In this document: in pieces, positions 15,812-35,489 of the stretch | Numbering within the stretch: position 1 is the first letter of the stretch | Layout: every line of letters starts with the position of its first letter | Source: Desulfuromonadales bacterium | GTDB taxonomy: Bacteria; Desulfobacterota; Desulfuromonadia; Desulfuromonadales; BM103 | NCBI GenBank assembly: GCA_030145195.1 | Contig: JAQYVY010000016.1 | Location: 1-64,000, forward strand | Length of the DNA: 64,000 bases | Reading direction: 5' to 3' | Program-made: the position numbers and the translations under genes | Notes under the pieces: model-generated | Told to the model about the DNA's origin: nothing | Database searches by the model: none | What the model saw: the letters and a program-made list of their open reading frames with translations, nothing else

Positions 15812-16285
15812 TTAATAGCCTAATTTCTTATAAACGTGATCCTGAAAGTGATAATTATCGTTGTCATTGTGCATTTTATACTTTTGTATCGCAAATGAAA
15901 CAATATTTGGGGAGAAAGGAACAAAAATAGCACCAATATCTCTTATTATTGGCGGGCAAGTACCCTGCACCATAGACCTTGAATTATCAAGATTTACACC
16001 AATAATGGTGCATCCTTTTTCAATGGCAACCTCTGCCTCCCATCTAACGTATTTATGTTTGCTCTTCGTGTCACTACCAATGAGCATTACATATTTGCCT
16101 GCCATTTTGATTCTCTCTCGGCACTTTTGCTTTATGTAAGTTTCATTTTCTGAATTCACTTCAGTTTGAAGCTGACAGTTTGCAAAATCAAATTCGATAT
16201 TGTCATTCGCCTTCCATGCCTGCATAAGTCGGTAATAACGAATATCAGTACTACTGAAACCAACAAAAGTTCTTGGTAACCCCAT
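15812..16285 (-). CDS. TIR-like (DUF1863/MTH538, ThsB-like) protein B
   Basis: A 157-residue single-domain protein. TFVGFSSTDIRYYRLMQAWK, the stretch NSENETYIKQKCRERIKMA, VMLIGSDTKSKHKYVRWE and GCTIIGVNL follow the order seen in DUF1863 TIR-like proteins such as ThsB of Thoeris, which make NAD-derived signals after phage sensing. GGAGG lies five bases before the ATG. It is the last gene of island module 1, after the two TPR proteins, and is more AT-rich than its neighbours. No ThsA effector is adjacent, so it is not a standard Thoeris pair; the TPR proteins may take that role. Function inferred. Confidence 0.75.
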   Translation of the reverse strand: MGLPRTFVGFSSTDIRYYRLMQAWKANDNIEFDFANCQLQTEVNSENETYIKQKCRERIKMAGKYVMLIGSDTKSKHKYVRWEAEVAIEKGCTIIGVNLDNSRSMVQGTCPPIIRDIGAIFVPFSPNIVSFAIQKYKMHNDNDNYHFQDHVYKKLGY

Positions 16286-16411
16286 TTATTCCTCCCATAG
16301 ATATAACAATTTACATTTTGACAGCGGCGTACCCAAACACGAAGCACAGAATGTTTATAGCGCGTTGTTATTATTTACCGTTAACGCATCAGATTACTAA
16401 CCTTGAAAATT

Positions 16412-17641
16412 TCAAACGGCTTCCAATGCATGCTTCTTGCCTAATTCAAAAGTTTCCAATTCCCATTCGGCCAGGGCTTCTTTTCTAAATAACACCTCAT
16501 AAGTATCTCCGTCATGACTTTTCCCGGTGGCATAAAAACAATTGGCCAATGTGGCGTATACCCACCGGCGGTCGGTACGTTCATCAAAAGAGGGTTGAGC
16601 CAAATCATCTGTAAGTTCAGCGATAATTTCTTCGCGGACCTTACGTGCGCTCATCCGATCGTATAGAGCTTCATCATGGTCTGAATGAAGGCGAACTCTA
16701 AAATCATAGCATGTTGCGAGGTTCTCACCATTATAGTAATCACGCCGAAACTCGAAGCCTCGCCCATAATGGCGAATGGCAGCGTCTAACTGTGAGGGGT
16801 CTTGAGTTTCCAACCACAGTCGTTTGTATATAGCTCCCGTAATTCCACAAGTCTCTGGATCGTTCGATGTGTCAGGATGAAGGGCAGAGATGACCATCAG
16901 ACCATTCATGAGTGCGGCAATCTCTGAAGGTTGCTTGGACTTGTAAGTGGCAAGAGCGAGCTGCTGAAGAATGAAGGGCTCATTTGGCTTGAGCTGGTTG
17001 GCTGCATTATAAGCAGTGACAGCATCACTATGGCGACTTTCTTTGCATGCAGATTCACCTGCATGCATATAGCCTGATAGGCGCTCTTGCTCTGCTTCCT
17101 TCTCGTCCAGCAACTCAGCGAACTCATCATCGCTCATTCTGGGTTGCTGAAGTTTCGGCAGGAAAGTGTAGACGGGGCTATCTGGCCGCTGCGCAACAAG
17201 CACTTCTTCGATTAGTGCGTGCAAGTCACGCGACGCCCGTACTGCCTCACGAGCACCGATATCCTCACCCAAATGTTGGTATTCAAATGTACTGACATGG
17301 TCTAAATCAAAATAGAGGCGGCCTTTGTCCTCTTTCATGATTATGGTCGAGTTAGGCCGCAGTGCATGACGGACCCCAAGCTCGTAGACCGCATTGACGT
17401 TACCTGTAGAGATGTCAGCTATCACCAGTTCAGCACGCAGCAGCATTTCGTACATCTCAGTATCAATAACACCGGAATGCATAACCTCGTCCGCACGTAT
17501 GCACCGTAGTCCTGCATTTTCTGCTGCCGGGTGGATAATTGCCTCGTAGGTGGCGTTTAGATCAAGGGTCCGACCTGACTCAAAGTCAGTTTTCTTCCCG
17601 AATCCCATCACAACAAAACAAAGCTTACGGTTATCTGTCAT
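16412..17641 (-). CDS. Deoxyribosyltransferase-like (DRHyd) domain fused to a TPR scaffold
   Basis: 409 residues. The N-terminal 130 form a nucleoside 2-deoxyribosyltransferase-like Rossmann domain (CFVVMGFGKK, IRADEVMHSGVID, ELVIADISTGNVNAVYELGVRHALRP). The rest is helical repeats of the TPR type also found in the regulatory region of animal ASK/MAP3K5 kinases ('TRAFs-binding'). Such TPR scaffolds were proposed to sense NAD-derived nucleotides (Burroughs and Aravind, from memory). The likely role is an effector or sensor acting on nucleotides. The ATG at 17641 with GAGGG upstream is preferred; ATG 17734 would add 31 residues and has a weak site. It follows the hydrolase-TPR gene. Confidence 0.75.
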   Translation of the reverse strand: MTDNRKLCFVVMGFGKKTDFESGRTLDLNATYEAIIHPAAENAGLRCIRADEVMHSGVIDTEMYEMLLRAELVIADISTGNVNAVYELGVRHALRPNSTIIMKEDKGRLYFDLDHVSTFEYQHLGEDIGAREAVRASRDLHALIEEVLVAQRPDSPVYTFLPKLQQPRMSDDEFAELLDEKEAEQERLSGYMHAGESACKESRHSDAVTAYNAANQLKPNEPFILQQLALATYKSKQPSEIAALMNGLMVISALHPDTSNDPETCGITGAIYKRLWLETQDPSQLDAAIRHYGRGFEFRRDYYNGENLATCYDFRVRLHSDHDEALYDRMSARKVREEIIAELTDDLAQPSFDERTDRRWVYATLANCFYATGKSHDGDTYEVLFRKEALAEWELETFELGKKHALEAV

Positions 17642-17754
17642 TAGTCCCTCGCTAGTTTTACCAAACACATTTACGGCTGAAGCTATCTCACATGGCCGTA
17701 ATTTCTCAATATTGGCTTTTTCTGGGTCCACCATGCCTGGCTAGAATTTACGCC

Positions 17755-19173
17755 CTAAGACAGGCCAAACACCTCATCTATCTGTTTGGCACCATCTTCC
17801 CCAAACACACGCAATGCAACGGTCACAGCTTGCATGTGCATAGAATCACATTGGCGGAGATCTTTTGCTAACCCCCGAGCCCCTCGATAAGCGTCTACGG
17901 CAACTTCCAAATTGCCAAGCATCAGGTGGGCCTCACCTTTAGTTGCGCAAGTCCAGTGGTTTTCATGTGCCGCATCAACGTGGCCCAGAGCTCTCCTCGC
18001 CATTTCCTTGACTTCAGTGGTTGGGGGACCGTCCCCTGCTTCTGACAATAGTCGGAGGAAAGCCACGTTAATGGCATGGTAATAAGCTTGGCTATGGTCC
18101 TTACTGGCCTCAGCGCACTCAAGTCCTTCATTATAAAGCTCAAGAGCACGGTCAAAGTCTTGTTCTTGGCGAGATGTCATCCAGCGACGCTTCAACCGTC
18201 CCGCCAGTACTCCTATGGGATCAAGCGAACGACGCTCGTGAGCGTCGTTCCATTTCTCAATAACCTCAATCGCGTCTTCATTGCGGCCAACACTTTCGAG
18301 TGCCAGTGCCAGGGTAACAATTGCATCTGCATCGAGGCCGTCTGCACCAGGCAACAGTAACTCAATAGCATGATTGAATTCATTGTGCTCTACCGCTAGT
18401 CTTGCGCTCTCGACTGCACTGAAAGCCCCACGGGAGTCGGTCAGAGTTTTATAGAACAGCTCGTATGAATAGTGGTCAGTAGAGTCAGGTCTTACAATTC
18501 CCAAGTGATTGCCCGGTACCACAGCCTGCTGCGAATTTGGAAATGGATCAATTGACGATGATGCAGGAACGAAAGCGTCGGTTTCTCCAGCAATGGCGGT
18601 AAAAGAGAAAAGTGGCCGTTCTCCGATTGTATTCTGCCAATCCTCTCGAAGTTGTGTAATAAACGTGCTTCCAGCACACATGTCGCTTGCCTGTCGCTTA
18701 ATGCGTGCTACTAAGGAGGCCTTCAACACACCCGCGCTTGGAGTGCCGTAGAGCAGCACATGCCTTAGGCGATTCCTCAATTCCTCACTGTCAAGAATAG
18801 CCCGCTGAACTACGAGCCCCCCCATACTATGAGCAACCAGGACAATAGCTTGATAACTATCAAGCGGAGCGAGCCTTAGCTTTGTAGTCAGCCCAACAGC
18901 ACAAACACGAATGTCTGGATCCGAGGTCCAAATTGGCAGATCAATAGAAAGGTTGGTCGGATACCCTGCACTATAAACATCCCAATCGTTCAAACGGTGA
19001 TCATTTAAAAAGTTTGTCAAAAAAGAAGCCCATGTTGTGCCAACATCTCCACTGAAACCATGGACAAAAATGACTGCAGCACGACTCCCGGCGTTCCTAT
19101 TCTCTTCGAGGGCCAACGACAGATCTTTATTCCCGACACCAAATATTTTGCAAAAAATGTCTTTAATAATCAC
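17755..19173 (-). CDS. Alpha/beta hydrolase (lipase-like) fused to a TPR scaffold
   Basis: 472 residues. The N-terminal half is an alpha/beta hydrolase: VIFVHGF (oxyanion, 38-40), nucleophile elbow AHSMGG (Ser116), candidate acid Asp199 in GETDAFVP and His223 in GNHLGIV. It resembles lipase/esterase effectors that could attack membrane lipids. The C-terminal half (from about residue 240) is TPR-like (HNEFNHAIELL, NEDAIEVIEKW, FDRALELYNEG, LEVAVDAYRGA). The same layout, effector then TPR scaffold, appears in the next gene with a different effector domain. It starts with GTG overlapping the stop of the SLOG gene by four bases, so the two are translationally coupled. Probable membrane-damaging effector, inferred. 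Confidence 0.78.
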   Translation of the reverse strand: MIIKDIFCKIFGVGNKDLSLALEENRNAGSRAAVIFVHGFSGDVGTTWASFLTNFLNDHRLNDWDVYSAGYPTNLSIDLPIWTSDPDIRVCAVGLTTKLRLAPLDSYQAIVLVAHSMGGLVVQRAILDSEELRNRLRHVLLYGTPSAGVLKASLVARIKRQASDMCAGSTFITQLREDWQNTIGERPLFSFTAIAGETDAFVPASSSIDPFPNSQQAVVPGNHLGIVRPDSTDHYSYELFYKTLTDSRGAFSAVESARLAVEHNEFNHAIELLLPGADGLDADAIVTLALALESVGRNEDAIEVIEKWNDAHERRSLDPIGVLAGRLKRRWMTSRQEQDFDRALELYNEGLECAEASKDHSQAYYHAINVAFLRLLSEAGDGPPTTEVKEMARRALGHVDAAHENHWTCATKGEAHLMLGNLEVAVDAYRGARGLAKDLRQCDSMHMQAVTVALRVFGEDGAKQIDEVFGLS

Positions 19174-19739
19174 AGATTTCTCCGCTTTGTGAGCACTGAT
19201 TTTTTCTCAAACCCCTGAGAAAGCGCATTATTGAGAAAATCGGCAGTAGAATCATCTGCCCCACGAGATTTACCTTCCCAAACAACAAAAGCAAGCTTTC
19301 GCTGGAACCGCGACCTTAGAGCCGAATGTATTATTCGAGAGTTAGCCTCTGAGAAGGCATTTTCATCGTCGGTAGCGAGCCCAAGCTCGATAAGATCATC
19401 TCGGCTGTGAGCTTCCGTCACCAAAAGGTCATAACGCTCTCCCCAATTTCCTGGTCGATCGATAACTGAAATATTCCGGAAACGATCTGGATCAAAGGGC
19501 AGCACAATAGTGGCTGGGATAGCTAATTCTTTTGCAGCTTCAAGGGCGAGGATATCTGCTCCACAGGCCGCAGAGCAGACAAGACGTTCGACACGTTCCT
19601 GACGGAAGCGACGAATAATCTTGTGCAGCACGTATTCAGCTTCTATCAGGGGAAAGCGCGAGGCATCGGCGTCTTGTGCGTCGATCCGACGGCCAGCAAG
19701 AGCTGCGACAGCAGGGGTAAGGCAATCCTGATCTACCAT
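19170..19739 (-). CDS. SLOG/LOG-like nucleotide-binding protein
   Basis: 189 residues. VCSAACGADILALEAAKELA followed by IPATIVLPFDPDRFRNISV has the Rossmann layout of the SLOG superfamily (LOG/DprA-like), whose members bind or generate nucleotide signals. A DNENAFSEANSRIIHSAL-like helix near residues 115-140 could form part of the pocket. The ATG at 19739 has GGAGGGAGGG ten bases upstream; an upstream GTG at 19772 is rejected. Its TGA overlaps the GTG of the hydrolase-TPR gene. I infer a nucleotide sensor or messenger enzyme paired with the TPR effectors. Ligand unknown. Confidence 0.7.
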   Translation of the reverse strand: MVDQDCLTPAVAALAGRRIDAQDADASRFPLIEAEYVLHKIIRRFRQERVERLVCSAACGADILALEAAKELAIPATIVLPFDPDRFRNISVIDRPGNWGERYDLLVTEAHSRDDLIELGLATDDENAFSEANSRIIHSALRSRFQRKLAFVVWEGKSRGADDSTADFLNNALSQGFEKKSVLTKRRNL

Positions 19740-19822
19740 TGGTAGTTTTCCCTCCCTCCCATGAGTGCCCACATGACTAATGGTGACGTGAATATAAAAG
19801 TCGGGCGCCGAAAAGTCTTTTA

Positions 19823-20305
19823 TTACAATTCATCCGAAAGTTTCGACCAGGGTACCACTTTGATATCCTTGGGGAGCCAAGCGGGCTTTCCCCCTTGTAG
19901 ATTGGCACCCGAATGTACCGCGATTACCCTCTTGCCCAGCTCACGGCTCTTGTCGACCTCCCACTTAACCCATTGGCTTTGTGCTGTATTCGCGGAAAGA
20001 TAAACAACAGTAGTTGAAGTCCTTTGGATACGTTCTGCAATTTTGCGCTTAATGTATTCCGCCCTCTCACTATTGTACGGTTCACGTACCGAGTGGTCAT
20101 TAAACTCGATGTCACTTTTATCGTTTTTGGCTTGCCCGCGGAGTAAATTAACCTCATTCATGTCCTCAGTTGCAAAACTGATGAAGACATTTCGATTTCC
20201 ATCCTGAGGCGCTTCCTTTGCCTTTTGAAGCGCTTCTTTTGCCTTTTGTTCGAGCGCTCGAATATCCCCGAGAGTGCTCCACCCACCACCACCGTCACCA
20301 CCCAT
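19823..20305 (-). CDS. TIR-like (DUF1863, ThsB-like) protein A with Met-Gly-Gly N-terminus
   Basis: 160 residues: a glycine-rich tip MGGDGGGGW, an amphipathic helix (about 12-34), then a TIR-like DUF1863 domain from residue 39 (NVFISFATEDMNEVNLLRGQ, NSERAEYIKRKIAERIQRTS, VVYLSANTAQSQWVKWEVD, ELGKRVIAVH). GAGGAGG six bases upstream fixes the ATG at 20305, so the glycines are truly N-terminal after Met removal; the longer frame from 20350 is rejected. It starts one base after the stop of the QueC-like gene. Recent work, as I recall it, reports that QueC-like enzymes of type IV CBASS and Qat attach a deazaguanine to an N-terminal glycine of a partner protein; this protein is the obvious candidate here. 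Confidence 0.8.
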   Translation of the reverse strand: MGGDGGGGWSTLGDIRALEQKAKEALQKAKEAPQDGNRNVFISFATEDMNEVNLLRGQAKNDKSDIEFNDHSVREPYNSERAEYIKRKIAERIQRTSTTVVYLSANTAQSQWVKWEVDKSRELGKRVIAVHSGANLQGGKPAWLPKDIKVVPWSKLSDEL

Positions 20306-20306
20306 A

Positions 20307-20897
20307 TTAGGCCTCCTCGAACTTGTATTCATTGCACGCAATACATTCACCGCAGGCTTTTTCTCCGCCTATATGGCAGGAGTATGTATTTTCAATTCCT
20401 TTGTGCCTAGCGAGCGCGACAACATCAGCTTTATGAAAATCAGCAAGAGGGGCGAGAACTCTGATGCTCTTTCCCATGCAACTGCTAATCAGGCCTTCGG
20501 CATCATGAAGAAATGCTGAAGTTTGATCTGGGAAAAGATGAGTACTTTCGTGAAGCAGCCCTATCGAGACAGTATCGGCACCAACTTGATATGCATAGGC
20601 TGCAGCTGTTAATAAAAACAACATATTCCGCCCAGGTGTGAATGCGTCATCGACTATATGAAGATTGGGGTCGGTAAGTCCCGATCGAATGAGTGCACCG
20701 AAACCGGAGAGGTCTGCCAACTTCGGCTCGGGTAGATTGAGGTCGATCATCGCTCGCCGGCAAGCCGCCAACTCCCGATCGCGTGAGCGCTGGCCATAAT
20801 CGACAAATAACGGATATTGCTGTAGGCCTTCTTCCTGTGCAAGTTTTGCGACAAGGACCGAATCGAGACCACCCGACACAAGCGTGACAATACTCAT
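20307..20897 (-). CDS. QueC-like 7-cyano-7-deazaguanine synthase family protein (Cap9/QatC-like)
   Basis: 196 residues. It has the ATP pyrophosphatase loop SGGLDS (8-13) and a C-terminal zinc site with C174, C182, C185 and C188, as in QueC, which builds preQ0 from carboxy-deazaguanine. No queD, queE or folE lies nearby, so housekeeping queuosine synthesis is unlikely. Neighbours are a DNA glycosylase, a TGT-like protein and TIR proteins, which matches the accessory set of type IV CBASS (QueC = Cap9, TGT = Cap10, OGG = Cap11). The ATG at 20897 overlaps the glycosylase stop (ATGA). A role in protein or nucleobase modification for defence is inferred. Confidence 0.88.
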   Translation of the reverse strand: MSIVTLVSGGLDSVLVAKLAQEEGLQQYPLFVDYGQRSRDRELAACRRAMIDLNLPEPKLADLSGFGALIRSGLTDPNLHIVDDAFTPGRNMLFLLTAAAYAYQVGADTVSIGLLHESTHLFPDQTSAFLHDAEGLISSCMGKSIRVLAPLADFHKADVVALARHKGIENTYSCHIGGEKACGECIACNEYKFEEA

Positions 20898-21601
20898 ACT
20901 GCTACAGTCTCCATATTCCGATTCGCCACACGCATAACAATCCATATTGCCCAATCAAGAAGCCCAACCGGGCAATCTAACTCTTGAGCATGTTCGCAAA
21001 GGGCATCCTCATGTAGCTGATATTGTTTCAGGCCAGAGATAAAATGCTTAGTTCCCGAATAGATACCTAACCTTGACATGTAATTCAGAACGTGGCGGTC
21101 GAGGATTGCAAGATCATAACTTACACCAGCATTACGCAAAAACATGCTGGCCTGTTTGGGCCCTATGCCAGGAACATGCTCGACAAACCAAGTGCGAGCC
21201 TCCGTAGCACAATTGAAGTTATTGACGAGTTCGCGCAGTGAACCCGTTTCCGACGTGATGGTCGCACGTGTTGCTGTAAGGTGCTGAGCACGAGCCACAG
21301 GGAAACGATACTTGCGAGACCGCCCTTCGACGATTAGTGGTGTGCTCAATAGTTCAACTAATTGCGGCATCAAATTCTCTATGTCGCTTTGAGCGTTCAG
21401 TAGAAGCTTTTTTTCATCAATAGCATTAGCTGCGGCGACAGCAAGTGGGTAAGGAACCTGACTACTTAAAATACAGGATGATAGCTCCCACCACAGGCGC
21501 CGTTCGCTGCGAGGGTTGGTGTCGCTTCTCACTCGATCCAAGATATCAGGACAAATAGCGGCGACAGCATTTGAGAGATTTTCAATTTTGTATTGATTCA
21601 T
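20894..21601 (-). CDS. OGG-like HhH-GPD DNA glycosylase/lyase (Cap11-like)
   Basis: 235 residues of the endonuclease III/OGG superfamily. The helix-hairpin-helix reads HVPGIGPKQASMFLRNAG, with the candidate Schiff-base lysine K149, followed by LAILDRHVLNYM with the catalytic aspartate D168. The N-terminal WELSSCILSSQVPYPLAVAAA is the usual helical-domain opening. No iron-sulfur cysteine set is seen at the C-terminus, which favours the archaeal-type Ogg/Cap11 group over Nth. The start at 21601 gives an ATGA overlap with the TIR-TGT gene; an in-frame ATG at 21607 is possible. It probably excises or recognises a modified base made by the neighbouring enzymes; this is inference. Confidence 0.82.
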   Translation of the reverse strand: MNQYKIENLSNAVAAICPDILDRVRSDTNPRSERRLWWELSSCILSSQVPYPLAVAAANAIDEKKLLLNAQSDIENLMPQLVELLSTPLIVEGRSRKYRFPVARAQHLTATRATITSETGSLRELVNNFNCATEARTWFVEHVPGIGPKQASMFLRNAGVSYDLAILDRHVLNYMSRLGIYSGTKHFISGLKQYQLHEDALCEHAQELDCPVGLLDWAIWIVMRVANRNMETVAV

Positions 21602-23022
21602 TCGCATAATCCAGGCACTTTTTGCATAAATTGTCTCGCAGTTTGACCCATTTTATACACCAAAAAAGCTTCAATATTATCTTCGTTAAAGTACTTTCGC
21701 ATCTCACGGATAAAGCTATCATAGTAATCAAGGTTATGAAACACAGCTTTCGTGCTAAAAGTTATCCCTTCATTTTCTAAATAAACTCTGGCAACTGGTG
21801 ATTCAACCATGCCTATCTGGTTTATAAAAAGGTCGAAATGCTGAAAATGATGAAGTCGGTCCGATGCCCTATCGACAACCATTCTGCACCATTCCAATCC
21901 ATCAAAGGTGTCCGCACCCGCTGCAGCGAGAACTGGGATAGTCCAAGGATTTCCGGTGCCTAAAATGTGAATCGGTTGATAAAAAGGTAACTGACTTAGT
22001 TCCTGTCTAATCGCCAGTACAGTTTTAGCCCGCTCGATAAGTCCGAATCCGAGGTCACGCTCTGGAATGCCAATCAGTGGAGGGTTAAGTTTTACCGCAA
22101 CTTCACGGACAATCCGTTGAATACTATATAGCTCGCGTTCACCCTGCTCTAGTTTTAACGCATGCACAATTGGAATTACCGGAGCAGAAGTGAACAAGCT
22201 ATCTCGCTCTACCGCATTTATTATCTGTTCAACAGCAAGGGCTGGATCTGGTCTTGAGCCTGTTTCATCAACACCATCAAAGCAGAACGCCCAATCATGT
22301 GGTGCGTGAGAAAGTACCTCCTTTAAACTGTCAGCATTCCATGACTTATCTTTTAAACGGAAAGCTTCATAGTAACCAGAATCGATCAGGACAAACCCGC
22401 CACTATCTCTGTATTCGGTTAACTCTTTGAGCATTTCCTCAGGAGCACGACTTTTGTCCAAATCATATGCTGAAACAAGTATGTTTGGTGCTTCAAATAT
22501 ACGAAGTGCGGCCACTGCATCTGACGGAATAAGTTGTGTCTCATGCGACGACACTGATGGGAAAAATGTTGGTAGTGGGATGCGATCATTAGCAATTGCG
22601 GATAGTCGTCTCGGCTTTTTATTCGGTGCGACTTTTGTAGATATTTTTATTTTTAACAGCAAAACCTCTGGATGGTCTGCCTCCCCCTTCCAGTCTTGCA
22701 AATCTATTTTACTGTTTATGTTATAGGGATAAGTCGGTTCACTTTTGCCAAGCTGAATAGGTATTATCGGCTTTTTATATCTGCGTGCTAACTCTAATTC
22801 AGCAAGAACTGTATCCTTATCTCTAGAAATTTCAGTAAACAACGCAACCACACAACTTGTTTTTTGAATCTCTTCTTCGATTGTCGGGTTATAAGGTCCA
22901 ACAATGTAATCGTCCCACCATGTGTCCCACGGCTCAGATAGGAGCCCATAAATTTCTTTAGCAATCAGACGGTCTTCTCTCGCATATATAATATAAATGT
23001 CGGACATATATCGCTTATCCAT
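21598..23022 (-). CDS. TIR domain fused to a TGT-like (tRNA-guanine transglycosylase) barrel
   Basis: 474 residues. Residues 7-100 are a canonical TIR domain (DIYIIYAREDRLIAKEIY, WWDDYIVGP, SCVVALFTEIS, LAELELARRYKKPIIPI), with Glu75 at the usual NAD-hydrolase position. Residues of about 150-474 resemble the TGT/DpdA TIM barrel: FVLIDSGYYEA near 212 (compare DSGGFQ), IPIVHAL, then HILGTGNPW and GADTFDGLEW near 371. The CxCxxC zinc site of tRNA TGTs is not present. This joins an NAD-cleaving or signalling domain to a base-exchange enzyme. ATG at 23007 is an alternative start. It overlaps the OGG gene and is preceded by the PfkB fusion gene. I do not know a described system with this fusion. 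Confidence 0.82.
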   Translation of the reverse strand: MDKRYMSDIYIIYAREDRLIAKEIYGLLSEPWDTWWDDYIVGPYNPTIEEEIQKTSCVVALFTEISRDKDTVLAELELARRYKKPIIPIQLGKSEPTYPYNINSKIDLQDWKGEADHPEVLLLKIKISTKVAPNKKPRRLSAIANDRIPLPTFFPSVSSHETQLIPSDAVAALRIFEAPNILVSAYDLDKSRAPEEMLKELTEYRDSGGFVLIDSGYYEAFRLKDKSWNADSLKEVLSHAPHDWAFCFDGVDETGSRPDPALAVEQIINAVERDSLFTSAPVIPIVHALKLEQGERELYSIQRIVREVAVKLNPPLIGIPERDLGFGLIERAKTVLAIRQELSQLPFYQPIHILGTGNPWTIPVLAAAGADTFDGLEWCRMVVDRASDRLHHFQHFDLFINQIGMVESPVARVYLENEGITFSTKAVFHNLDYYDSFIREMRKYFNEDNIEAFLVYKMGQTARQFMQKVPGLCE

Positions 23023-23069
23023 TTATCCTTAGTTGGCATTCCACTGATAACAACATCTGGACCTGCTCA

Positions 23070-24221
23070 CTACTTGACATGCTCCGCTGCAGCCCAAGCT
23101 GCGAAATAAAGTGCTGAGGCAAAATCATCTATGACGGTAACATCGGGTCCGTCGGCTAACGCCCCCGCCGTTTTCACTCCACTTTCTCGTAAAATAACAA
23201 TGGGTATTCCGCCAGCTTTGGTTCTTATTTGTTGAATCGCTTCGTCATCAAGCCCCTCAGTGAGGGCAAGGACTGCTTTTGCTGTCGAATTTATGGAGCT
23301 GTCCAATGCTGGACAAAACACCTCAACTCCAAGTTCGCGCAATACGAATCGTGCCTCTTCAATCGTATAACGTTGTCCAAGAGTATCGGCCACACCCTCA
23401 AGCAAAACGGAACCTGGAGCTGTGAACTGAATCGGTATCAGACCACTAATTTCTTCATCATTAAGTGGTAAACACCCGGCACTGCAATATGCAGCGACCC
23501 AACGTGAGGAAAGGTCTGCAGCATTAACTGCGGGCAAACCCTTCTCAGCCCAGAAATGAGTAAAAATTGCACTGAATACATCTCCGGTGCCGATTTTGAA
23601 CACACGCGACGAGCGGTATGCAGGGACAGAAGTGATTCTTCCACCACGTTCAAAGACCGTAGCTCCTCGTATTCCCCTTTTAGCGACAACAACCTCTGCC
23701 CCTTGATGCTCCATAACACTTAAAGCTGCCGCCTTAAGATCGTCGAGACCAGCAGCGGATTGGAGCTCAAGTTCGTTAAGCACAATTGCAAGTTCTTTCG
23801 CAACTGATCCATTTGCGCCAAACAGAGCCGGGTTTCGCCAGGTCTGTGGGTCATAAACAGCACGGCGAGCATTTACGATGGCATCTCCTTCCAGGAATCC
23901 AAAACGAAGTACGGCATCACCACTGACTTGAATTTTAGACTGACACTCAATCTCAGCGGTTGGGGGTTGAATAAGTGGTCTCGACAGTGGGTGAAAGTAT
24001 GTAAAAACAATAGCAGTTGGGCGCAGGCTTAAACGCATCTCGATGCCCAGTTTCTTTAGAGAAGCAACACTTTCGCTGTCGAAATCTTCAGAATAGGTAT
24101 GGAGGGTACTTCCGGGCGAGAGTGTAGAGACGGCCACTGCGGCTCGGCCACCAGAACCAAATATGGCGTCCCACGCAGGTATACAACATTGTTCTCGATA
24201 AAGCCCACCGACTATATGCAT
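23070..24221 (-). CDS. PfkB-family kinase fused to a nucleoside deoxyribosyltransferase-like domain
   Basis: 383 residues. The N-terminal part (about 1-265) is a ribokinase/PfkB fold: ALFGANGSVAKELAIVLNE, VVVAKRGIRGATVFERGG, then the anion-hole motif KIGTGDVFSA near 210 with the catalytic Asp. The C-terminal part (about 275-383: TLGQRYTIEEARFVLRELG, VEVFCPALD, GIPIVIL, VTVIDDFASALYFAAWA) resembles nucleoside 2-deoxyribosyltransferases. Together it could phosphorylate nucleosides and exchange their bases. It is the first gene of the module by position and direction, 47 bp before the TIR-TGT gene. Substrate and role in defence are inferred. Confidence 0.75.
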   Translation of the reverse strand: MHIVGGLYREQCCIPAWDAIFGSGGRAAVAVSTLSPGSTLHTYSEDFDSESVASLKKLGIEMRLSLRPTAIVFTYFHPLSRPLIQPPTAEIECQSKIQVSGDAVLRFGFLEGDAIVNARRAVYDPQTWRNPALFGANGSVAKELAIVLNELELQSAAGLDDLKAAALSVMEHQGAEVVVAKRGIRGATVFERGGRITSVPAYRSSRVFKIGTGDVFSAIFTHFWAEKGLPAVNAADLSSRWVAAYCSAGCLPLNDEEISGLIPIQFTAPGSVLLEGVADTLGQRYTIEEARFVLRELGVEVFCPALDSSINSTAKAVLALTEGLDDEAIQQIRTKAGGIPIVILRESGVKTAGALADGPDVTVIDDFASALYFAAWAAAEHVK

Positions 24222-24734: not shown

Positions 24735-26117
24735 CTAGTTTTTTTTCCCACCAAACGTTTTCATCACTTGACTACGAATGGCATTAAGGTTCATTGCACT
24801 TTCATCTATTCTGCGTAGCATTTCACCCAATTCCTTTCTGGTACGCGCGTCATCTTCAAACATTTCAGACTGATGAGGACTCCTGTCACTTCCTTGTACA
24901 TGACCGTACTCATACCATTTGAAGTTCGCCGAAATGAGAGGAAAAACCTCAACGTTAAGCACACCAGTAGTAAGCGTTCTCAAATCAAATTTCGCTGAAT
25001 CACGATTTCGCAACAAAACCTCCATTTCAGTAAGTGCGATATCACAAGTCGGAGAAGACAACCAATGTACTGGCCGCTCAATTTCTCTTTTCAGTAACCA
25101 ACCCAGTCCACTTCCGTAATTGGCCACAGAGGTCTCTGGTGTCAAACCAGCGCAAGCCCCGTACCACAATAGGCTCTCAGGACAGGTTGAAAGCACCGGG
25201 AAAAGAAGAGAAAAGTGATCGAGGCTACCAGGTTGAATTCTGCTCACCAGGTAACCAAGCAGAAAAGCTTGATGTTCCCGGTTTTTCTCTAAGCCATTTA
25301 CTAGACTCTTAACCTCTACCTCAACTGCTTTGACTCTATCTTCGCGCGGCCCCTCTAACACCTCAAAAAGAGCCACAATCTTTTTGGATCTACCATATAG
25401 TTTCGTCCAGATACTCCGAGGGACGCGGCCATCAATAAGCACTCCCTGAAGAGCGTCCAAAAGCAAACGATTTACCACAGAATTACTTTGAGACTCGCGT
25501 GGGGAAACAGCGCATCGGACAATTTCCCATACATCGCTGATCCTGCCGGAAGATAAACCCAAGGATTGTTGTTGCAAACACTTACGGGCAGAGAGCCACC
25601 CTTTTTCTATCTGACTGAAGACCCCCTCTTGATCTCTATAGACCTGATTGTAATGTTTAAGGCCTTTTGCGAAAGCAAAAGACAACGTTCGAACGTAAGC
25701 CGAAAGTGGCAACTTTTTAACATCTGTGCGGCTGGCTGAATACGCTATTACCTCAGCTAAAATAAGTCCTATATCTGCCGATTTCACATCATGCATAGGA
25801 GGGGACTGATGGGCTTGTTCTGCCAATCGAGCGAGGGATGGTGTAAGAACACGGCATTGCGCTGTAAAAGGTCGGAGGTGTTTGAAATATGTAGATATCC
25901 AAGCAATGAAATCCGGCACGCCTCCTTCGGCAACAATGACTGCACTTGGCAATACAAACCTTTCGGATGGAGATTTTTGCCAGACAAGTATGATGTCTTC
26001 ACCTTGGACAAAGACATCTTCAATCGAATCAATCCATTGAACATCATGCGAGTTCAAAGGCTTTTGGTCTGCAAAGAAATCTACAAATTGGCGACGACTA
26101 CATAGCCAATGAAACAT
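24735..26117 (-). CDS. Unknown protein, third gene of kinase-helicase module
   Basis: 460 residues; I recognise no domain. It is mostly helical in appearance, with FAFAKGLKHYNQVY, a run of charged helices (PREDRVKAVEVEVKSLVNGL) near 265-285, and a C-terminal heptad-like tail (RKELGEMLRRIDESAMNLNA). No membrane span, signal peptide or nuclease motif is obvious. Its ATG shares one base with the helicase stop (TAATG), so expression is tied to the helicase and kinase. It ends about 125 bp from the middle att remnant. It could be a sensor or adaptor of a defence module. Confidence 0.75.
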   Translation of the reverse strand: MFHWLCSRRQFVDFFADQKPLNSHDVQWIDSIEDVFVQGEDIILVWQKSPSERFVLPSAVIVAEGGVPDFIAWISTYFKHLRPFTAQCRVLTPSLARLAEQAHQSPPMHDVKSADIGLILAEVIAYSASRTDVKKLPLSAYVRTLSFAFAKGLKHYNQVYRDQEGVFSQIEKGWLSARKCLQQQSLGLSSGRISDVWEIVRCAVSPRESQSNSVVNRLLLDALQGVLIDGRVPRSIWTKLYGRSKKIVALFEVLEGPREDRVKAVEVEVKSLVNGLEKNREHQAFLLGYLVSRIQPGSLDHFSLLFPVLSTCPESLLWYGACAGLTPETSVANYGSGLGWLLKREIERPVHWLSSPTCDIALTEMEVLLRNRDSAKFDLRTLTTGVLNVEVFPLISANFKWYEYGHVQGSDRSPHQSEMFEDDARTRKELGEMLRRIDESAMNLNAIRSQVMKTFGGKKN

Positions 26118-27274
26118 TATTTAGTACCTCCAAAAACTTCTTCTATCGTAGGGGGCAGAGGCTCGGGCTTCAACAACTGAAGAGCTGCATCAAAATATCC
26201 ATGCAAATCATCACAATGATAGACAGATAATGCCGTTTTTGCCCTCGTAACAGCCGTAAAAGTTAGAGCTCGATTACGCCCAAAAGATTTAAGTTCATCA
26301 CAAGCAGCCAAGTGAAGTGCGCGGAATTCTAAACCTTTCGCAGAATGGAATGTAGATATTACAATTGGTTTGTCCGGTGGGAACATATCGTCCGAACTCC
26401 CATGAAGAAGAAAGGCTTTATCCGAATGCTTAGACTTGCTAAGTATATCCCAAATGGCATTCATTGTGTCTCTTTTCGGGCAAAGGATACCTATAAGTTC
26501 ATTAGGAAAAGTAACAAGCTGTGTCTCTAGCCGCGACATTATCAACTCGACTTGTTCTTCGATTGAGTCGCATTTCGTGCAATTAACAGTTGATGGGTTG
26601 GCCACTTCATCATAATTAGACGTTTCAGCTAACGGCTGATAACCGAGCAACTTCTTAGCGATTCCATCTGCGACGCGACAAATATTAACGCCATTTCGAT
26701 AGTGAAACTGCAATTCGTGAGGCTCTCCGATAACAGTTTTGATTATGTCTAAAGAATCTTCGTCATCATAAAGTTTCTGCCTTTCGTCGGCCACGCAGTA
26801 AAACCGGTCCGTTAAGCTTGAAAAGAGTCGAATCTCGTCTGGGGTATAATCCTGTGCCTCATCAAGAAGAATTGCATCATAAACGTTCGACAGTTCTAAG
26901 GAATCTACCTTCTTTTTTATTTCCACCAAAAACGCTTCACGGTCAGCCTTAAAATCATCGGTAGACTCTACATGCCCTCCATACTGTTTTATGAAATCAA
27001 TTTGCCACTCTCGACACGTCATAATCTTTGACGCAGGAAAATCGTAATTCTCCGCGCCGTTGGCAATAAACTCTCGTAAAGACCGAGTAAAAGTGACAAC
27101 TACGATATTGTGAAGCCCTGCAAGATAAAGGTAGTTCGCACGTAATAGGAGAAGATTTGTTTTCCCTGAGCCAGGAGGGCCTGTTATAAAAACGCTGTCA
27201 TCAACAGGTAATGCAATAATATTACGCTGTGTTTCATCCAACTCCGTCTGATCTACCCACCATGTTCCACTCAT
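26117..27274 (-). CDS. UvrD-like superfamily 1 helicase
   Basis: 385 residues. Walker A GPPGSGKT at 32-39, motif Ia-like VVVTFTRSL, motif II DEAQD at 138-142, motif III-like YCVADERQKLY, motif IV/V FHSAKGLEF and motif VI FTAVTRAKTALSV. It is short for UvrD and lacks large 1B/2B insertions, so it may be an ATPase switch rather than a processive helicase. The start overlaps the kinase stop and the end overlaps the next start, both as TAATG. Known partners of such compact UvrD proteins in islands include nucleases (for example Gabija), but no nuclease motif was found in its neighbour. Confidence 0.85.
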   Translation of the reverse strand: MSGTWWVDQTELDETQRNIIALPVDDSVFITGPPGSGKTNLLLLRANYLYLAGLHNIVVVTFTRSLREFIANGAENYDFPASKIMTCREWQIDFIKQYGGHVESTDDFKADREAFLVEIKKKVDSLELSNVYDAILLDEAQDYTPDEIRLFSSLTDRFYCVADERQKLYDDEDSLDIIKTVIGEPHELQFHYRNGVNICRVADGIAKKLLGYQPLAETSNYDEVANPSTVNCTKCDSIEEQVELIMSRLETQLVTFPNELIGILCPKRDTMNAIWDILSKSKHSDKAFLLHGSSDDMFPPDKPIVISTFHSAKGLEFRALHLAACDELKSFGRNRALTFTAVTRAKTALSVYHCDDLHGYFDAALQLLKPEPLPPTIEEVFGGTK

Positions 27275-28677
27275 TACGGCTCCTCCAAGACTTGATTAAT
27301 ATCTAGCCAATATGCATCTTCGGTTGGCGAAAGTTGTCCGCCTTGACGTTGGGCAAAGTCAATCGCGCTCCACAAGACATCACGCACTGCCAATGCAAGG
27401 CTTCTTGACTCCAATGACCCACGGAATACATCTGTTACAGATGGTGCATCTCCATGATCAGATCCCGTTCGCAGAAAGCACACTGATGCGACAATATGAA
27501 AGGCCATCGTCGCTTCATCAACAAGGTCACAATCAAAACGAATCGAAAGTTGGCGCGGCAATTCATGAACAGAGGACGGTTGGAATACAACTCGAACCTG
27601 TACAGGATTCTCACTTATTTTCGGAAGAATTTGCATCTGTGGGAATGCGCTACTTCCGGCGCACTCATTTCTGACTACAGCATCAAGTCGTGATGCAACA
27701 TGTCTCCCTATTTGCCTTTGAGACAAACTGTGTGGCTTCTCCTGCTCTGGCGCTTGTGAACGAGTGAGCAAACGGCGCTTTAATACCCTTTCTCTTGCAA
27801 GGTCTGCTGACCTGTGCACATCTCGTCCGATATCGAAGTCTCCCCATGACACCAAAGAAAGACGCGCCTCTGGAGGCTTTACGAGACAATTCCTCGCAAG
27901 TAAAACAAGATTTGCAGAGACATCATCTGCATGCAAACGAGGCGTTTCATTTCTCACAGCATCAACCAAAAGAGCAAAAGGGTCCGAGAACTCAAGAAAA
28001 AGTGGCTGGCGCATTATCAGGTCGTGCAGAACGGCCCCTAACTGGTAGAAAGTAACAGCTCGCCATCCTTCTTCATTATCAGACTCTTTTCGGAGAAGAA
28101 ACTCAGGGGAACTGTAACGAAGTGTCCCAACGAACAACCTTGCGTCTTCATCAGTAAGATCAGAGTCACCGATTGGACGCAGCACACCAAGGTCTAGTAG
28201 AACGGCTCGAGAAAAGTCCTCAAGAACAACGATATTCTCCGGCTTAATATCTCGATGTACAAGCCCCTTGGTTTCGAGGAATTTGGCAGCAGACGCAATG
28301 TGGTTGAGGATAGTGGAAATTTTTTCACGGGGGACTAATGTAAGAGAATCCTTCAAATTTGGAGCTTTAATAAACTCCATCACCAGGTATAACAACCCAG
28401 AATTCTCGCATGCACCGCCATCAAAAATTTGAACCAAGTTAGGATGTTTTACACCAATCAAAAACCGCTCGCGCTCAATTCTTTCGAGCTGAGCTTCTCT
28501 TCCGTACTTTTCAACCAATTCAGGATCGAAAATCTTCAGTGCCGCTTTCTGCCCGTCTTTCTCACTCTCGAAAACAACTGCCGACTTCCCGTTGTTAATG
28601 AACTTCTGTACGAGCCAACCACCGACACTTTTCCCGACAAGATCCGTTGCAATATTTTGGGCACGGACAGAATCCAT
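27274..28677 (-). CDS. Serine/threonine protein kinase with C-terminal extension
   Basis: 467 residues. The kinase domain spans about 15-285: AALKIF with the ATP lysine K48, HRDIKPEN at 141-148 (catalytic D143), DLG at 162-164 where DFG is usual, then a SSPEFLL (APE-like) segment. There is no membrane span. The C-terminal 180 residues carry no domain I recognise; they look like a mixed alpha/beta sensor. It is the first gene of a three-gene unit with a helicase and an unknown protein. It may trigger on phage infection and phosphorylate targets, as other island kinases do; this is inference. Confidence 0.85.
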   Translation of the reverse strand: MDSVRAQNIATDLVGKSVGGWLVQKFINNGKSAVVFESEKDGQKAALKIFDPELVEKYGREAQLERIERERFLIGVKHPNLVQIFDGGACENSGLLYLVMEFIKAPNLKDSLTLVPREKISTILNHIASAAKFLETKGLVHRDIKPENIVVLEDFSRAVLLDLGVLRPIGDSDLTDEDARLFVGTLRYSSPEFLLRKESDNEEGWRAVTFYQLGAVLHDLIMRQPLFLEFSDPFALLVDAVRNETPRLHADDVSANLVLLARNCLVKPPEARLSLVSWGDFDIGRDVHRSADLARERVLKRRLLTRSQAPEQEKPHSLSQRQIGRHVASRLDAVVRNECAGSSAFPQMQILPKISENPVQVRVVFQPSSVHELPRQLSIRFDCDLVDEATMAFHIVASVCFLRTGSDHGDAPSVTDVFRGSLESRSLALAVRDVLWSAIDFAQRQGGQLSPTEDAYWLDINQVLEEP

Positions 28678-30156: not shown

Positions 30157-30269
30157 ATTGTATCCTCAACACTTAAATCCTCAGTAATCTCCCGGAACGC
30201 CTTCATCGCCTTCTGAAGGGCAGCGACAATTCCTTCCGCAATCACGCATAATTCAGGTTTTTTTATCAT
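30153..30269 (-). CDS. 38-residue ORF bridging hsdR and the DUF3883 gene
   Basis: A short open frame starting MIKKPELCVIAEGIV and ending EDLSVEDTI. Its ATG shares one base with the hsdR stop (TGATG) and its stop overlaps the DUF3883 start (ATGA), so it fills the gap exactly with coupled signals at both ends. The predicted product is one amphipathic helix (about residues 10-30) with an acidic tail. No family was recognised. It could be a small regulator or antidote of the neighbouring nuclease, or a translated linker that keeps ribosomes moving to the next gene. Confidence 0.65.
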   Translation of the reverse strand: MIKKPELCVIAEGIVAALQKAMKAFREITEDLSVEDTI

Positions 30270-33200
30270 CACGCCGCAGCATTCGAATAGTAAGGCGAAG
30301 GAACCGTAGGATAATTCCGATACACATGCCGGAAAACATCATCCGCCTTCTGGGCGACATCGTCCTCCGTGTAACCATCAACCGGTAGCCCCGTCTCATC
30401 ACTCCACAAAAAGTCCCGGATAGTATTCAGTACCGCATCCCGGGTCGCCTCTTTGTCTCGCCAATGGTCAACCCTCAGCTTCTCAGCCTTGAGCCTTCCC
30501 AGAAGCTCCACTGCGACTGCCTTGATTCTCTTTATCTCAGGTTGGCTCAGTTCCTGCTTTTTTAACAAGTCAAAGATGGCCAATGATTCTTCATCAAGGC
30601 CTTCACGAACAGCGCGGTGTTCTTCTTCATCAAGTGACTGCTCAAGCTTAAACAGGGCCTCAAAAGTCTGCTCAATGGTTACCCGGTCTTTCTCTCGATT
30701 ATAATCGGTTACAATCTGCTCAAAATGTTGTTGGAAGTCAGTTCTAAGTGGATTCCGCTGCAACAGTCGTTGCAAACGTTGCTCCACGACTTGTCGGAGG
30801 TCTTGAACGATGGTGCTCTTTTCTGTACTGCGTTCGAATTCTTGTTTGAGCCGTTCAAAATCTATCTGGCTTATGTCGTAAGGCGCACGTTCGTCTTCGT
30901 CCGTTCCCTCCCGAACCTCAATCGCCTCGTTTACAACCTTGTGCAATTTACGGATGATGTCGGTGATGTCAGCTTGCTCACGGTCTCGCTGGAGACTCTT
31001 GTAGACGATGTTGATGGCATCACGATCCGACCGGTGAGCATTCACCCCTTGCACGTTGATACACGCCTTGAATTTCTTGAAGACCTCGCGACATATCACT
31101 TCAAATCGCTTGCGGGTCTCGTCGTTCTCGTTGGCGGCTTCCTTGCAGACCGCAATAGCAGCATTGCGTTCGAAACCGGGCAGATTTATGACATCGTCCA
31201 ATGAAGAACCTCGGTCGGTAAGAAACTGCCGTACAAAAGCAATGGTTTCAGCCAAATCAGCCAACAGTTCCTCATCTGGCCGGGCTGGGTCGGTCTCACC
31301 ACCCTGCCCTCCGGGCTGTGTGCCAGCAAAAGTCGCTAAGGCCTTGCGCAGATGTTTGAGAATTCCACAGTAGTCAACGATCAAGCCGTTGTTCTTACCT
31401 TCATTCACACGATTAGCGCGAGCAATAGCCTGCATCAGAGTATGTGCCTTCAGTGGCTTGTCTAGGTACAACGTGGCAAGACTCGGCACATCGAACCCGG
31501 TCAACCACATAGCGCAGACGATTGCGACACGGAAAGGATGTTCTTCTTCTTTGAACGCCTCATCCAAATCCATGCGTTGCATGTTCCGGAATTGAGGTTT
31601 GTTGCGCATCGACTCAGGCAGATCGATACCTTCCTTGATGAGACGCCTGTGTGGCGTAATGTCCAGGTCCCACTTACGGAATTTATCAACCTCGCCCTGC
31701 TCTTCACTCACCACTACCGCCATGCGAGTTTCCCGCATCCAATCAATCTGACGATGAAGGAACAATTCCTCCTGTTCGTCAACGATTGTGGCCAGAGACT
31801 TCTCCAGCTCGCTGATACGTTCATTCCAGTGAAACTCAATCAGTTGGTGCATCCGCACACAAGTCACCTTGTCGAGACAGACCATCATTGCCTTACCGGT
31901 TTCCCAGGCTGTCGAATAGTGCCGTACAAAGTCCCGTGCGACTTGGTCAAGCCGTTTACCAGCAGTAATGATGTGGTAGTCGCGTGTGAGTTCTCTTTCC
32001 AGCCTTTGCTCAACGTTGATGTCATCGACTTCGAACTCTTCCAGCTTCTCAGCGATGCGTTCGTTTAAGTCACCGATGGCAATACCCAATTTATCACCCC
32101 GGGCATCGTAATAAATTGGCACCGTGGCATTGTCCTCAACCGCACGCTGGAAATCATACGTCGAGACGTACTTACCAAAGATGCGCCGTGTTATCTCGTC
32201 ATCACCGAACAGGGGTGTTCCTGTAAAGCCTATGTAGCTGGCATTTGGCAGGGCGTTGCGCATATTGAGAGCCAAGGTACCGTATTGAGTACGATGAGCC
32301 TCATCAGTGAGAACGATGATATCGTCACGTTGGGTGTAGCCTTCATCTGGGTCTACTTCCTGGTTGAATTTCTGGATCAGCGAAAAGACAAAGGCCTTGT
32401 GCTCGGTCAGAAGCTGGCCAAGGTGAACGCCACCAGAAGCTCTACACGGTTCGCGATCATGGTCAACCACCCCACACCCTGCAAAGGTCTTATAAATCTG
32501 CGTGTCGAGGTCATCACGGTCTGTCAGCACCAGGAACGTGAAGTTGCCGCCAAGTTTGCGATGAACTTTACGGGTAAACATCACCATCGAGTAACTTTTA
32601 CCCGCCCCTTGGGTATGCCAAAAGACCCCCAACTTCCCTAGCCGAACTTTGCGCTCACGCACTGCCTCAATGGCCAGGTTCACACCAAGGAACTGATGGT
32701 TGCGTGCGAGAATCTTTCTGGGTTCGCCGGCCGACTCATCAAAGAGGATAAAGTTCTCCACCAAGTCGATGAAATTGTGCCGATCACAGACACCCTTAAG
32801 CAAGGTTTCCATATCGACCGCCCCCGGCTCATCTTCGGCCAAGCGCTTCCATTCATTGAAGTGCTCCCACTTACTGGTGACCGAACCAATCTTTGCCTGT
32901 TCCCCGTTGCCGAACATGACGATTGTGTTGTGGTGGAAGAGATGCGGGATAGTGTCACGATAATCGGAGAAATTCTGTTCGAAGGCTGCCTTGAGATTCT
33001 TATGAATATTTTTGCACTCGATGAACAACAGTGGCAGGCCGTTGACGAAACCGATGATGTCTGCCCGCCGTCGGTAAAGGTCACCCTTTACCCACAGCTC
33101 ACGCACGCAAAGGAAAGCATTATTGGTCGGCTCATCGAAATCTAAAACCTTTAGACGCTGACGAACCCTCTCGCCCTTTTCGTTACGGAAGGTCACCTGC

Positions 33201-35265: not shown

Positions 35266-35489
35266 GACTCCTCCCTATGAATCAAGCCTTTAGTCAGGGT
35301 TACTACCCCAGTAATGTGGAGAAGGTCTAAAGCCAGGACAAATCGTTCATAGGTACCAACGGCCCTTTCCTCACGCACCTTGCCCCAGAGACTGGTAACG
35401 GTTTGGGGCCGCTCCAGATGGCGAAGCACAACGGCTCCCACACCCAGCAGTGCCTGTTCCTCCGAGATGTGCTTAGATGGCAAAATCAT
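35262..35489 (-). CDS. ABC-3C middle component, MC6-like
   Basis: 75 residues. MILPSKHISEEQALLGVGAVVLRHL and RFVLALDLLHITGVVTLTKG match the short 'middle component 6' proteins of ABC-3C systems, which have a winged-helix-like fold and link the effector to the ATPase. Four-base overlaps with the HNH gene upstream and the DUF2326 gene downstream support a stoichiometric complex. Confidence 0.8.
   Translation of the reverse strand: MILPSKHISEEQALLGVGAVVLRHLERPQTVTSLWGKVREERAVGTYERFVLALDLLHITGVVTLTKGLIHREES

What the first reader, a model, noticed from the sequence alone, without database searches (positions are those of the whole stretch)
15812..24221. Candidate undescribed defence system: QueC + OGG + TIR-TGT with TIR, SLOG and TPR partners but no CD-NTase
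Seen: nine minus-strand genes, several with overlapping junctions, encoding PfkB-deoxyribosyltransferase, TIR-TGT, OGG, QueC, TIR-like, SLOG, hydrolase-TPR, DRHyd-TPR and TIR-like proteins. Known: QueC, TGT and OGG are the accessory genes (Cap9-11) of type IV CBASS; TIR, SLOG and this TPR scaffold are tied to NAD-derived signalling. Inferred: a nucleobase-modification module has been rewired to a TIR/NAD signal in place of a cyclic oligonucleotide synthase.
Basis: partly seen in the sequence, partly recalled or inferred. Interest (0 to 1): 0.93.

Follow-up and report, generated by a model that had tools for sequence, protein, structure and literature searches.

The report
QueC-TGT operon with tagged TIR
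A conserved bacterial gene set, probably an anti-phage defence, seems to reuse a recently discovered protein tag (a modified guanine joined to the first residue of a partner protein) on a TIR signalling enzyme instead of the usual cyclic-nucleotide synthase, which would make the tag a reusable immune switch.

Summary
The nine genes are present. A five-gene core, PfkB kinase > TIR-TGT > OGG > QueC > small ThsB-type TIR, stands in the same order in 27 of 27 loci fetched through TIR-TGT, all Pseudomonadota, with no CD-NTase detected. SLOG (2 of 27) and hydrolase-TPR (1 of 27) are peripheral.

The new observation is at the queC/TIR junction. The small TIR starts ATG-GGT-GGT (MGGDGGGGW). It starts MGG in 26 of 27 loci; the 27th keeps ATG-GGC-GGC but its frame is broken. 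MGGS is the published N-terminal motif of the type IV CBASS CD-NTase, whose Gly2 receives 7-deazaguanine (NDG) from the QueC-like Cap9. In a control, 0 of 22 TIR-profile ORFs around 15 other TIR sites start MGG. The TGT half matches Cap10, which binds the NDG tail, best by sequence and predicted fold.

Best reading: QueC deazaguanylates the TIR, TIR-TGT docks the tagged tail, and the TIRs process NAD. Gene set, tail and homology are shown; chemistry and phage defence are inferred. It works like the tag branch of type IV CBASS but fails the CD-NTase test, so it is not CBASS.

The parts
23070..24221 (-). PfkB/ribokinase-fold protein, core gene 1, with an extra C-terminal alpha/beta region (about residues 270-383) of untested kind
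   Evidence: 27 of 27 loci; model pLDDT 88.7; residues 1-264 match pseudouridine, ribo- and nucleoside kinases at Z about 25; GxGD glycines and Asp214 in 27 of 27
21598..23022 (-). TIR-TGT, core gene 2; start probably 23007 (Met6) by comparison with relatives; predicted binder of the NDG-tagged tail, carrying a second TIR
   Evidence: TIR_2 and TGT; Cap10 is the only PDB sequence match at E<=1; best fold match 9ntn, VIA Z 26.9; Glu75, Asp214, Asp374 in 22 of 22 aligned rows
20894..21607 (-). OGG-type HhH glycosylase/lyase, core gene 3; start probably 21601 (Met3)
   Evidence: Ogg-HhH 7.5e-28; Lys151 and Asp170 in 28 of 28 rows (their catalytic role is recalled)
20307..20897 (-). QueC family enzyme, core gene 4; predicted to conjugate 7-carboxy-7-deazaguanine to the small TIR
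   Evidence: QueC 2.5e-37; SGGLDS, YxQ(x)5E, RN and zinc cysteines kept, FPDQ in place of YPDC
19823..20305 (-). Small ThsB-type TIR with N-terminus MGGDGGGGWSTLGD, core gene 5; predicted NDG acceptor at Gly2
   Evidence: sequence; MGG in 26 of 27 loci; no other possible start in 12 of 26; Gly2, Gly3, Trp9, Glu116 in 21 of 21 aligned rows
20294..20320 (-). queC/TIR junction: GGAGG inside the end of queC, stop TAA, one base, then ATG-GGT-GGT
   Evidence: sequence; same kind of junction in the other loci
19170..19772 (-). SLOG-like protein (weak call), accessory
   Evidence: YpsA E 0.18, under the cut-off; found in 2 of 27 loci
17755..19173 (-). Alpha/beta-hydrolase plus TPR-S, accessory
   Evidence: Abhydrolase_6 and TPR-S; window only, 1 of 27
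16412..17734 (-). Protein with C-terminal TPR-S; candidate sensor or effector, frequent accessory
   Evidence: TPR-S 4e-23; BLAST homologues in 26 of 27 loci, two of them partial
15812..16285 (-). Second ThsB-type TIR (MGLPRTF...), accessory, 127 bases after the previous gene
   Evidence: ThsB_TIR 3e-17; homologues in 16 of 27 loci

Best explanation
This is a TIR-based immune operon built on protein deazaguanylation. After removal of Met1, QueC joins 7-carboxy-7-deazaguanine to Gly2 of the small TIR, as Cap9 does to the type IV CBASS CD-NTase. The TGT half of TIR-TGT, a Cap10 relative, holds the tagged tail in its deazaguanine pocket instead of a tRNA. That brings the fused TIR and the tagged TIR together, and on infection they turn NAD into an ADP-ribose-type signal or deplete it. 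TPR-S proteins, a second TIR or SLATT membrane proteins act downstream. OGG and the PfkB protein are core but their step is open: OGG perhaps reads damaged or modified phage DNA, PfkB perhaps handles a nucleoside or the tag. Shown here: gene set, its conservation, the MGG tail, the Cap10 relationship, kept catalytic residues. Inferred: conjugation, docking, NAD chemistry, anti-phage role.
For: Core in one order in 27 of 27 loci. MGG tail in 26 of 27, at or across the queC stop, forced start in 12 of 26. The diverged subtype L051 keeps TGT, OGG, QueC and a TIR starting MGGGSGGGLFSSDIRSLEDK, close to the CD-NTase start MGGSGGGFFSNSDITKELRE of the CBASS locus L007 and to CdnD, GGSFGSGFDPRDISRQ. 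Control: 0 of 22 other TIR-profile ORFs start MGG. Published: Cap9 modifies Gly2 of an MGGS motif and G2D blocks it (PMC13279940, passages); Cap10 binds the NDG tail (PMC11996544, abstract). TIR-TGT matches Cap10 first by sequence and fold, lacks the zinc cysteines of canonical TGT and shares PSxSS and ExxLG with Cap10. Catalytic Glu kept in both TIRs (22 of 22, 21 of 21).
Against: No chemistry was measured. The QueC resembles canonical QueC at least as well as Cap9 (4e-16 and 3e-12 against 7e-12), forms its own clade and has FPDQ where Cap9 and QueC have YxDC. Its zinc and YxQ spacings also occur in some phage QueCs, so they are not diagnostic. L051 has no TIR on its TGT, so the TIR-TIR docking idea is not general. 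Host QueE, needed for CDG, was not settled. MGG could be only a flexible start; 7 of 573 other ORFs in the loci also start MGG at their first ATG.
Confidence: 0.65

Rival explanations
1. DNA-centred reading: QueC makes a free 7-deazaguanine base, the TGT half inserts it into DNA (DpdA-like), OGG removes or senses modified or damaged bases, and the TIRs are the toxic response.
For: Canonical-like QueC motifs, an intact OGG, TGT Asp214 and Asp374 kept.
Against: The TGT half is nearest Cap10, lacks the zinc cysteines; the MGG tail would be unexplained; no other DNA-modification gene belongs to the core. DpdA itself was not compared.
Confidence: 0.15
2. Thoeris-like TIR system in which QueC, TGT and OGG serve as sensors or regulators, and MGG is only a flexible leader with no tag.
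For: ThsB-family TIRs with the catalytic Glu; SLATT and TPR-S partners.
Against: The tail goes with QueC: both QueC-linked TIRs of the 395-genome control start MGG, and 0 of 22 other TIR-profile ORFs do; Cap10 relationship.
Confidence: 0.12
3. A housekeeping or stress operon for nucleoside salvage that is not a defence system.
For: PfkB nucleoside-kinase fold; OGG and QueC are base or nucleoside enzymes.
Against: Patchy presence: full-length TIR-TGT in 2 of 277 genomes of the class, the window's own included; plasmid and integrase neighbourhoods; type I restriction genes, by my reading of the ORFs, beside L051 and in the window; SLATT, TIR and TPR-S partners.
Confidence: 0.06

Closest known systems
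Type IV CBASS (CD-NTase with Cap9 QueC and Cap10 TGT; Cap11 for OGG is recalled)
   Same: QueC and Cap10-like TGT in one operon with a partner protein that starts MGG directly after them; small membrane partners in some loci
   Different: The MGG partner is a TIR, not a CD-NTase; TGT is fused to a TIR in 27 of 27 loci (not in L051); PfkB is a core gene; QueC is a separate clade from the two Cap9 examples
qatABCD
   Same: QueC-family enzyme with a partner that has an N-terminal glycine motif (MGTS in QatB, PMC13279940)
   Different: No QatA, QatB or QatD hit among the nine proteins; QueC is short (196 residues) and lacks the QatC extensions
Thoeris
   Same: ThsB-family TIRs with the catalytic Glu
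   Different: No ThsA recognised; QueC, TGT, OGG and PfkB are constant partners; the TIR carries the MGG tail
TIR domains of short prokaryotic Argonaute systems (entry names recalled)
   Same: The TIR of TIR-TGT matches TIR domains of entries 8z92, 8u7b, 8ifk, 8j8h (E about 5e-4)
   Different: No Argonaute among the nine proteins

Membership tests
Type IV CBASS | CD-NTase (oligonucleotide cyclase) in the operon | tested here: not met
   None in Pfam hits of the nine proteins, by BLAST in 27 loci or by a two-sequence HMM at E<0.1
Type IV CBASS | QueC-like Cap9 | tested here: inconclusive
   QueC family member with PADLOC type IV QueC match 1.4e-26, but as close to canonical QueC and its own clade
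Type IV CBASS | TGT-like Cap10 | tested here: met
   PADLOC TGT 4.5e-27; 9ntn first by sequence and fold; shared motifs
Type IV CBASS | Partner protein with MGGS-type N-terminus | tested here: met
   MGG in 26 of 27 loci, on a TIR; the fourth residue varies, S in the Pseudomonas-type loci, G, D or N elsewhere
Deazaguanylation-dependent immunity | NDG on Gly2 of the partner | not testable with these tools
   Needs mass spectrometry
Thoeris | ThsB-type TIR | tested here: met
   PF08937 and PADLOC ThsB models
Thoeris | ThsA effector | tested here: not met
   No PADLOC ThsA hit among the nine proteins; other loci were not scanned with PADLOC
Thoeris | NAD-derived signal | not testable with these tools
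   Needs metabolite measurement
qatABCD | QatA, QatB, QatD and a long QatC | tested here: not met
   No such hits among the nine proteins; QatC model only 0.0073, 15 bits against a cut-off of 280

The most novel reading that the evidence does not exclude
Deazaguanylation is a portable immune module (an 'NDG leash') that has been moved from a cyclic-nucleotide synthase to a TIR. The tag docks into a TGT that itself carries a TIR, so a nucleobase builds a composite TIR-TIR active site; infection may trigger it through OGG reading damaged or modified phage DNA.
Probability: 0.5. Interest if true: 0.93.

Novelty: new variant of a known kind. Interest (0 to 1): 0.87.

Why it matters
Protein deazaguanylation is known from type IV CBASS and proposed for Qat. 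A TIR family with the same acceptor tail, linked to QueC and a Cap10 relative in 27 of 27 loci, would show that the tag is a reusable switch independent of cyclic nucleotides, would tie it to TIR/NAD immunity, and would give a natural substrate swap with which to ask what the tag does. One mass measurement and one G2D mutant would decide it.

Tried and rejected
SLOG and hydrolase-TPR as defining parts: rejected, 2 of 27 and 1 of 27 loci. Deoxyribosyltransferase C-terminus of the PfkB protein: no Pfam support; the fold search filled up with the kinase domain, so that region stays untested. Zinc spacing C(x)7C and YxQ(x)5E as Cap9 signatures: rejected, some phage QueCs share them. QueC tree (50 rows): separate clade, relation to Cap9 unresolved (fork 94/71); dropped before the build were six similar TIR-system loci (L028, L032, L037, L041, L043, L044) and the odd-numbered viral rows. 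Phage records: no match. IMG/VR: one contig with this system; 50 further QueC loci were not searched for partners. Type IV CBASS examples were few: L007 and L050. The second TIR begins MGLPRTF in 12 of 16 but not MGG, so it was not taken as a substrate. The start choice leans on the window's own start; searches are the unbiased check. First control looked only 1.5 kb around and one of its 19 TIRs was the window's own second TIR, about 4 kb from QueC; so I repeated it with up to 10 kb on each side, less at contig ends. There one stretch of 15, L151, holds a QueC about 3 kb from a TIR that is an internal domain of a 756-residue ORF without MGG; no OGG lies near, and I take it for an unrelated QueC. 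An 825-residue ORF there has an internal MGG at residue 204. Fetched but not analysed: L075, L076; L052 gave a weak TGT match and L053 none. Of the 14 plasmid records, five were opened. Literature: ten searches listed no TIR-QueC-TGT system; the library has no bioRxiv collection and lacks most subscription papers; the Burroughs 2015 paper that I tried by recalled identifiers is not held.
Full report
Observation. The nine minus-strand ORFs are real. Pfam and PADLOC support two ThsB-type TIRs, two TPR-S proteins, QueC, an OGG-type HhH glycosylase and a TIR fused to TGT; PfkB is just under its Pfam cut-off but clear by fold. The SLOG, DRHyd and deoxyribosyltransferase labels reached no Pfam cut-off. 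Reading the strand gave two corrected starts: queC at 20897, overlapping the OGG stop, and the small TIR at 20305, one base after the queC stop, with GGAGG just upstream. The corrected TIR begins MGGDGGGGWSTLGD.

Conservation. tblastn of TIR-TGT against 72,556 plasmid records matched 14; 13 cover at least 80% of the query and are Rhizobium, Agrobacterium or Neorhizobium. The fourteenth, on a Pseudanabaena plasmid, is a type IV CBASS (L007: QueC, TGT-like protein, annotated CBASS oligonucleotide cyclase). Five of the 14 were opened. In the class of the window's genome 13 of 277 genomes matched, but only two over the full length, the window's own and G182; the other eleven match only the TIR part. 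A scan of genome contigs with two peptide patterns, which must undercount, gave 20 loci, among them Pseudomonas, Brenneria, Halomonas, Marinobacter, Methylotenera, Methylobacterium, Mesorhizobium, Sinorhizobium, Ensifer and Rhizobium. IMG/VR gave one, phage records none. That makes 27 loci: window, four plasmids (L003-L006), L023, L024-L043, L044. All were fetched through TIR-TGT. In 27 of 27 PfkB, TIR-TGT, OGG, QueC and the small TIR follow in one order; in L043 TIR-TGT is split and in L024 the small TIR is partial. L025, L043 and L044, L003 and L032, and L034 and L037 are near copies, so by my count about 23 are independent. Partners vary: homologues of the window's 16412-17734 protein in 26 of 27 (two partial), SLATT-type proteins in 23, the second TIR in 16, SLOG in 2, hydrolase-TPR in 1. 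These are BLAST counts; Pfam checked TPR-S in L003, L005 and L042 and SLATT_3 plus SLATT_1 in L003 only.

The tail. The small TIR starts MGG in 26 of 27 loci, at or across the queC stop; L024 has ATGGGCGGCGG there but that frame does not run into its TIR ORF. In 12 of 26 no other ATG, GTG or TTG lies between the upstream stop and this ATG. In 21 aligned rows Gly2, Gly3, Trp9 and Glu116 do not vary. A diverged subtype, L051, has a SLATT-type protein, a TGT without TIR, OGG (32%), QueC (55%) and a TIR (53%) that starts MGGGSGGGLFSSDIRSLEDK; no PfkB was found in its 14 kb. That start resembles the L007 CD-NTase, MGGSGGGFFSNSDITKELRE, and the CdnD chain of 9ntn and 9nto, GGSFGSGFDPRDISRQVRDAE. The second CBASS example, L050, starts MGGGGGKSSGS.

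Controls. The TIR profile matched 19 places in 16 of 395 genomes of the phylum. The two with QueC next door, the window and G482 (L051), start MGG and align from profile position 1. One further place is the window's own second TIR, which starts MGLP. Around the remaining sites I read 15 stretches of up to 20 kb: 22 ORFs match the TIR profile and 0 of 22 start MGG; OGG was found in 0 of 15 stretches and QueC in 1 of 15 (L151, see Tried and rejected). Among other ORFs of at least 150 codons in the loci, not all of them genes, 7 of 573 start MGG at their first ATG, besides the L007 CD-NTase.

Published chemistry. Cap9 joins CDG to the N-terminal glycine of the CD-NTase, giving NDG; the motif is MGGS; G2D blocks modification and defence; QatB has MGTS (PMC13279940, passages). 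Cap10 is a TGT relative remodelled to bind the NDG tail, and Cap9, Cap10 and NDG are essential for defence (PMC11996544, abstract). A 2026 survey of QueC proteins names QatC and Cap9 as the defence forms; I read parts 1 and 2 of 5 and a word search of its main text found no TIR, Thoeris or MGGS (PMC13329287).

TGT and QueC. The window TIR-TGT matches one PDB sequence, Cap10 (2.9e-10); the family profile matches Cap10 first (1.4e-11), then archaeosine TGT and several TIR chains. The AlphaFold2 model (pLDDT 88.1) matches 9ntn first in Foldseek and in VIA-align: Z 26.9, rmsd 3.4, 298 residues, 22% identity, against Z 23.5 for the best canonical TGT. Aligned with two Cap10s and the genome's two canonical TGTs, the window TGT half and L051 TGT lack the zinc cysteines and share PSxSS and ExxLG with Cap10; identities to Cap10 are still only 20-25%. 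QueC keeps SGGLDS, YxQ(x)5E, RN and the zinc cysteines but has FPDQ for YxDC. Its PDB matches are canonical QueC (4e-16, 3e-12) and Cap9 (7e-12), and its clade is separate, so it is not a plain Cap9. The host has a separate canonical queC beside an ORF that I read as FolE2 by eye; QueE was not settled.

Mechanism. The simplest account is a substrate swap: the CBASS tag machinery acts on a TIR. Both TIRs keep the glutamate that is catalytic in TIR NADases (role recalled; 22 of 22 and 21 of 21). TIR enzymes work as assemblies (recalled), so docking of the tagged TIR on a TGT that carries a TIR could assemble the active site; L051 shows that this is not obligatory. SLATT is a predicted ADP-ribose-derivative-regulated membrane effector (PMC9503650, passage). 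OGG keeps Lys and Asp in 28 of 28 rows; PfkB is a ribokinase-fold enzyme near pseudouridine and nucleoside kinases. The steps of these two are unknown.

Membership and novelty. It fails the CD-NTase test and is not CBASS; no ThsA was recognised, so it is not filed as Thoeris; it is not Qat. PADLOC 2.0.0 knows its parts separately. Ten literature searches listed no description, in a library that lacks much of the literature. I rate it a new variant of deazaguanylation-dependent immunity.

Noticed in passing
window 24735-28677 (-): Three adjoining genes: unknown protein (460 aa), UvrD-like helicase and Ser/Thr protein kinase; possibly a second defence module beside the operon.
   Followed up: no
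window 30269-39611 (-): By my reading of the ORFs, a type I restriction-modification set with other genes between; not scanned with HMMs.
   Followed up: no
   Followed up: partly
L024:12680-13055 and L043:7467-9863: Broken copies: in L024 the frame from the MGG start does not run into the TIR ORF; in L043 TIR-TGT is split into two ORFs about 2.4 kb apart, probably by an insertion.
   Followed up: no
L004 and L003: The system lies on an Agrobacterium Ti plasmid (pTiCFBP4996) and a Neorhizobium plasmid, each with an integrase gene nearby.
   Followed up: no
window 15812-16285; L142 (L060): The second TIR has a near-fixed N-terminus MGLPRTF (12 of 16); a relative in G144 starts the same with no QueC or OGG in its 20-kb stretch.
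   Followed up: partly
L001 and L002 (G000:C50 and C73): The host genome carries two full canonical-type TGT genes, 49% identical.
   Followed up: no
L003:4887-6104: A protein with the CAP12/Pycsar TIR effector domain lies about 2.6 kb before the PfkB gene.
   Followed up: no
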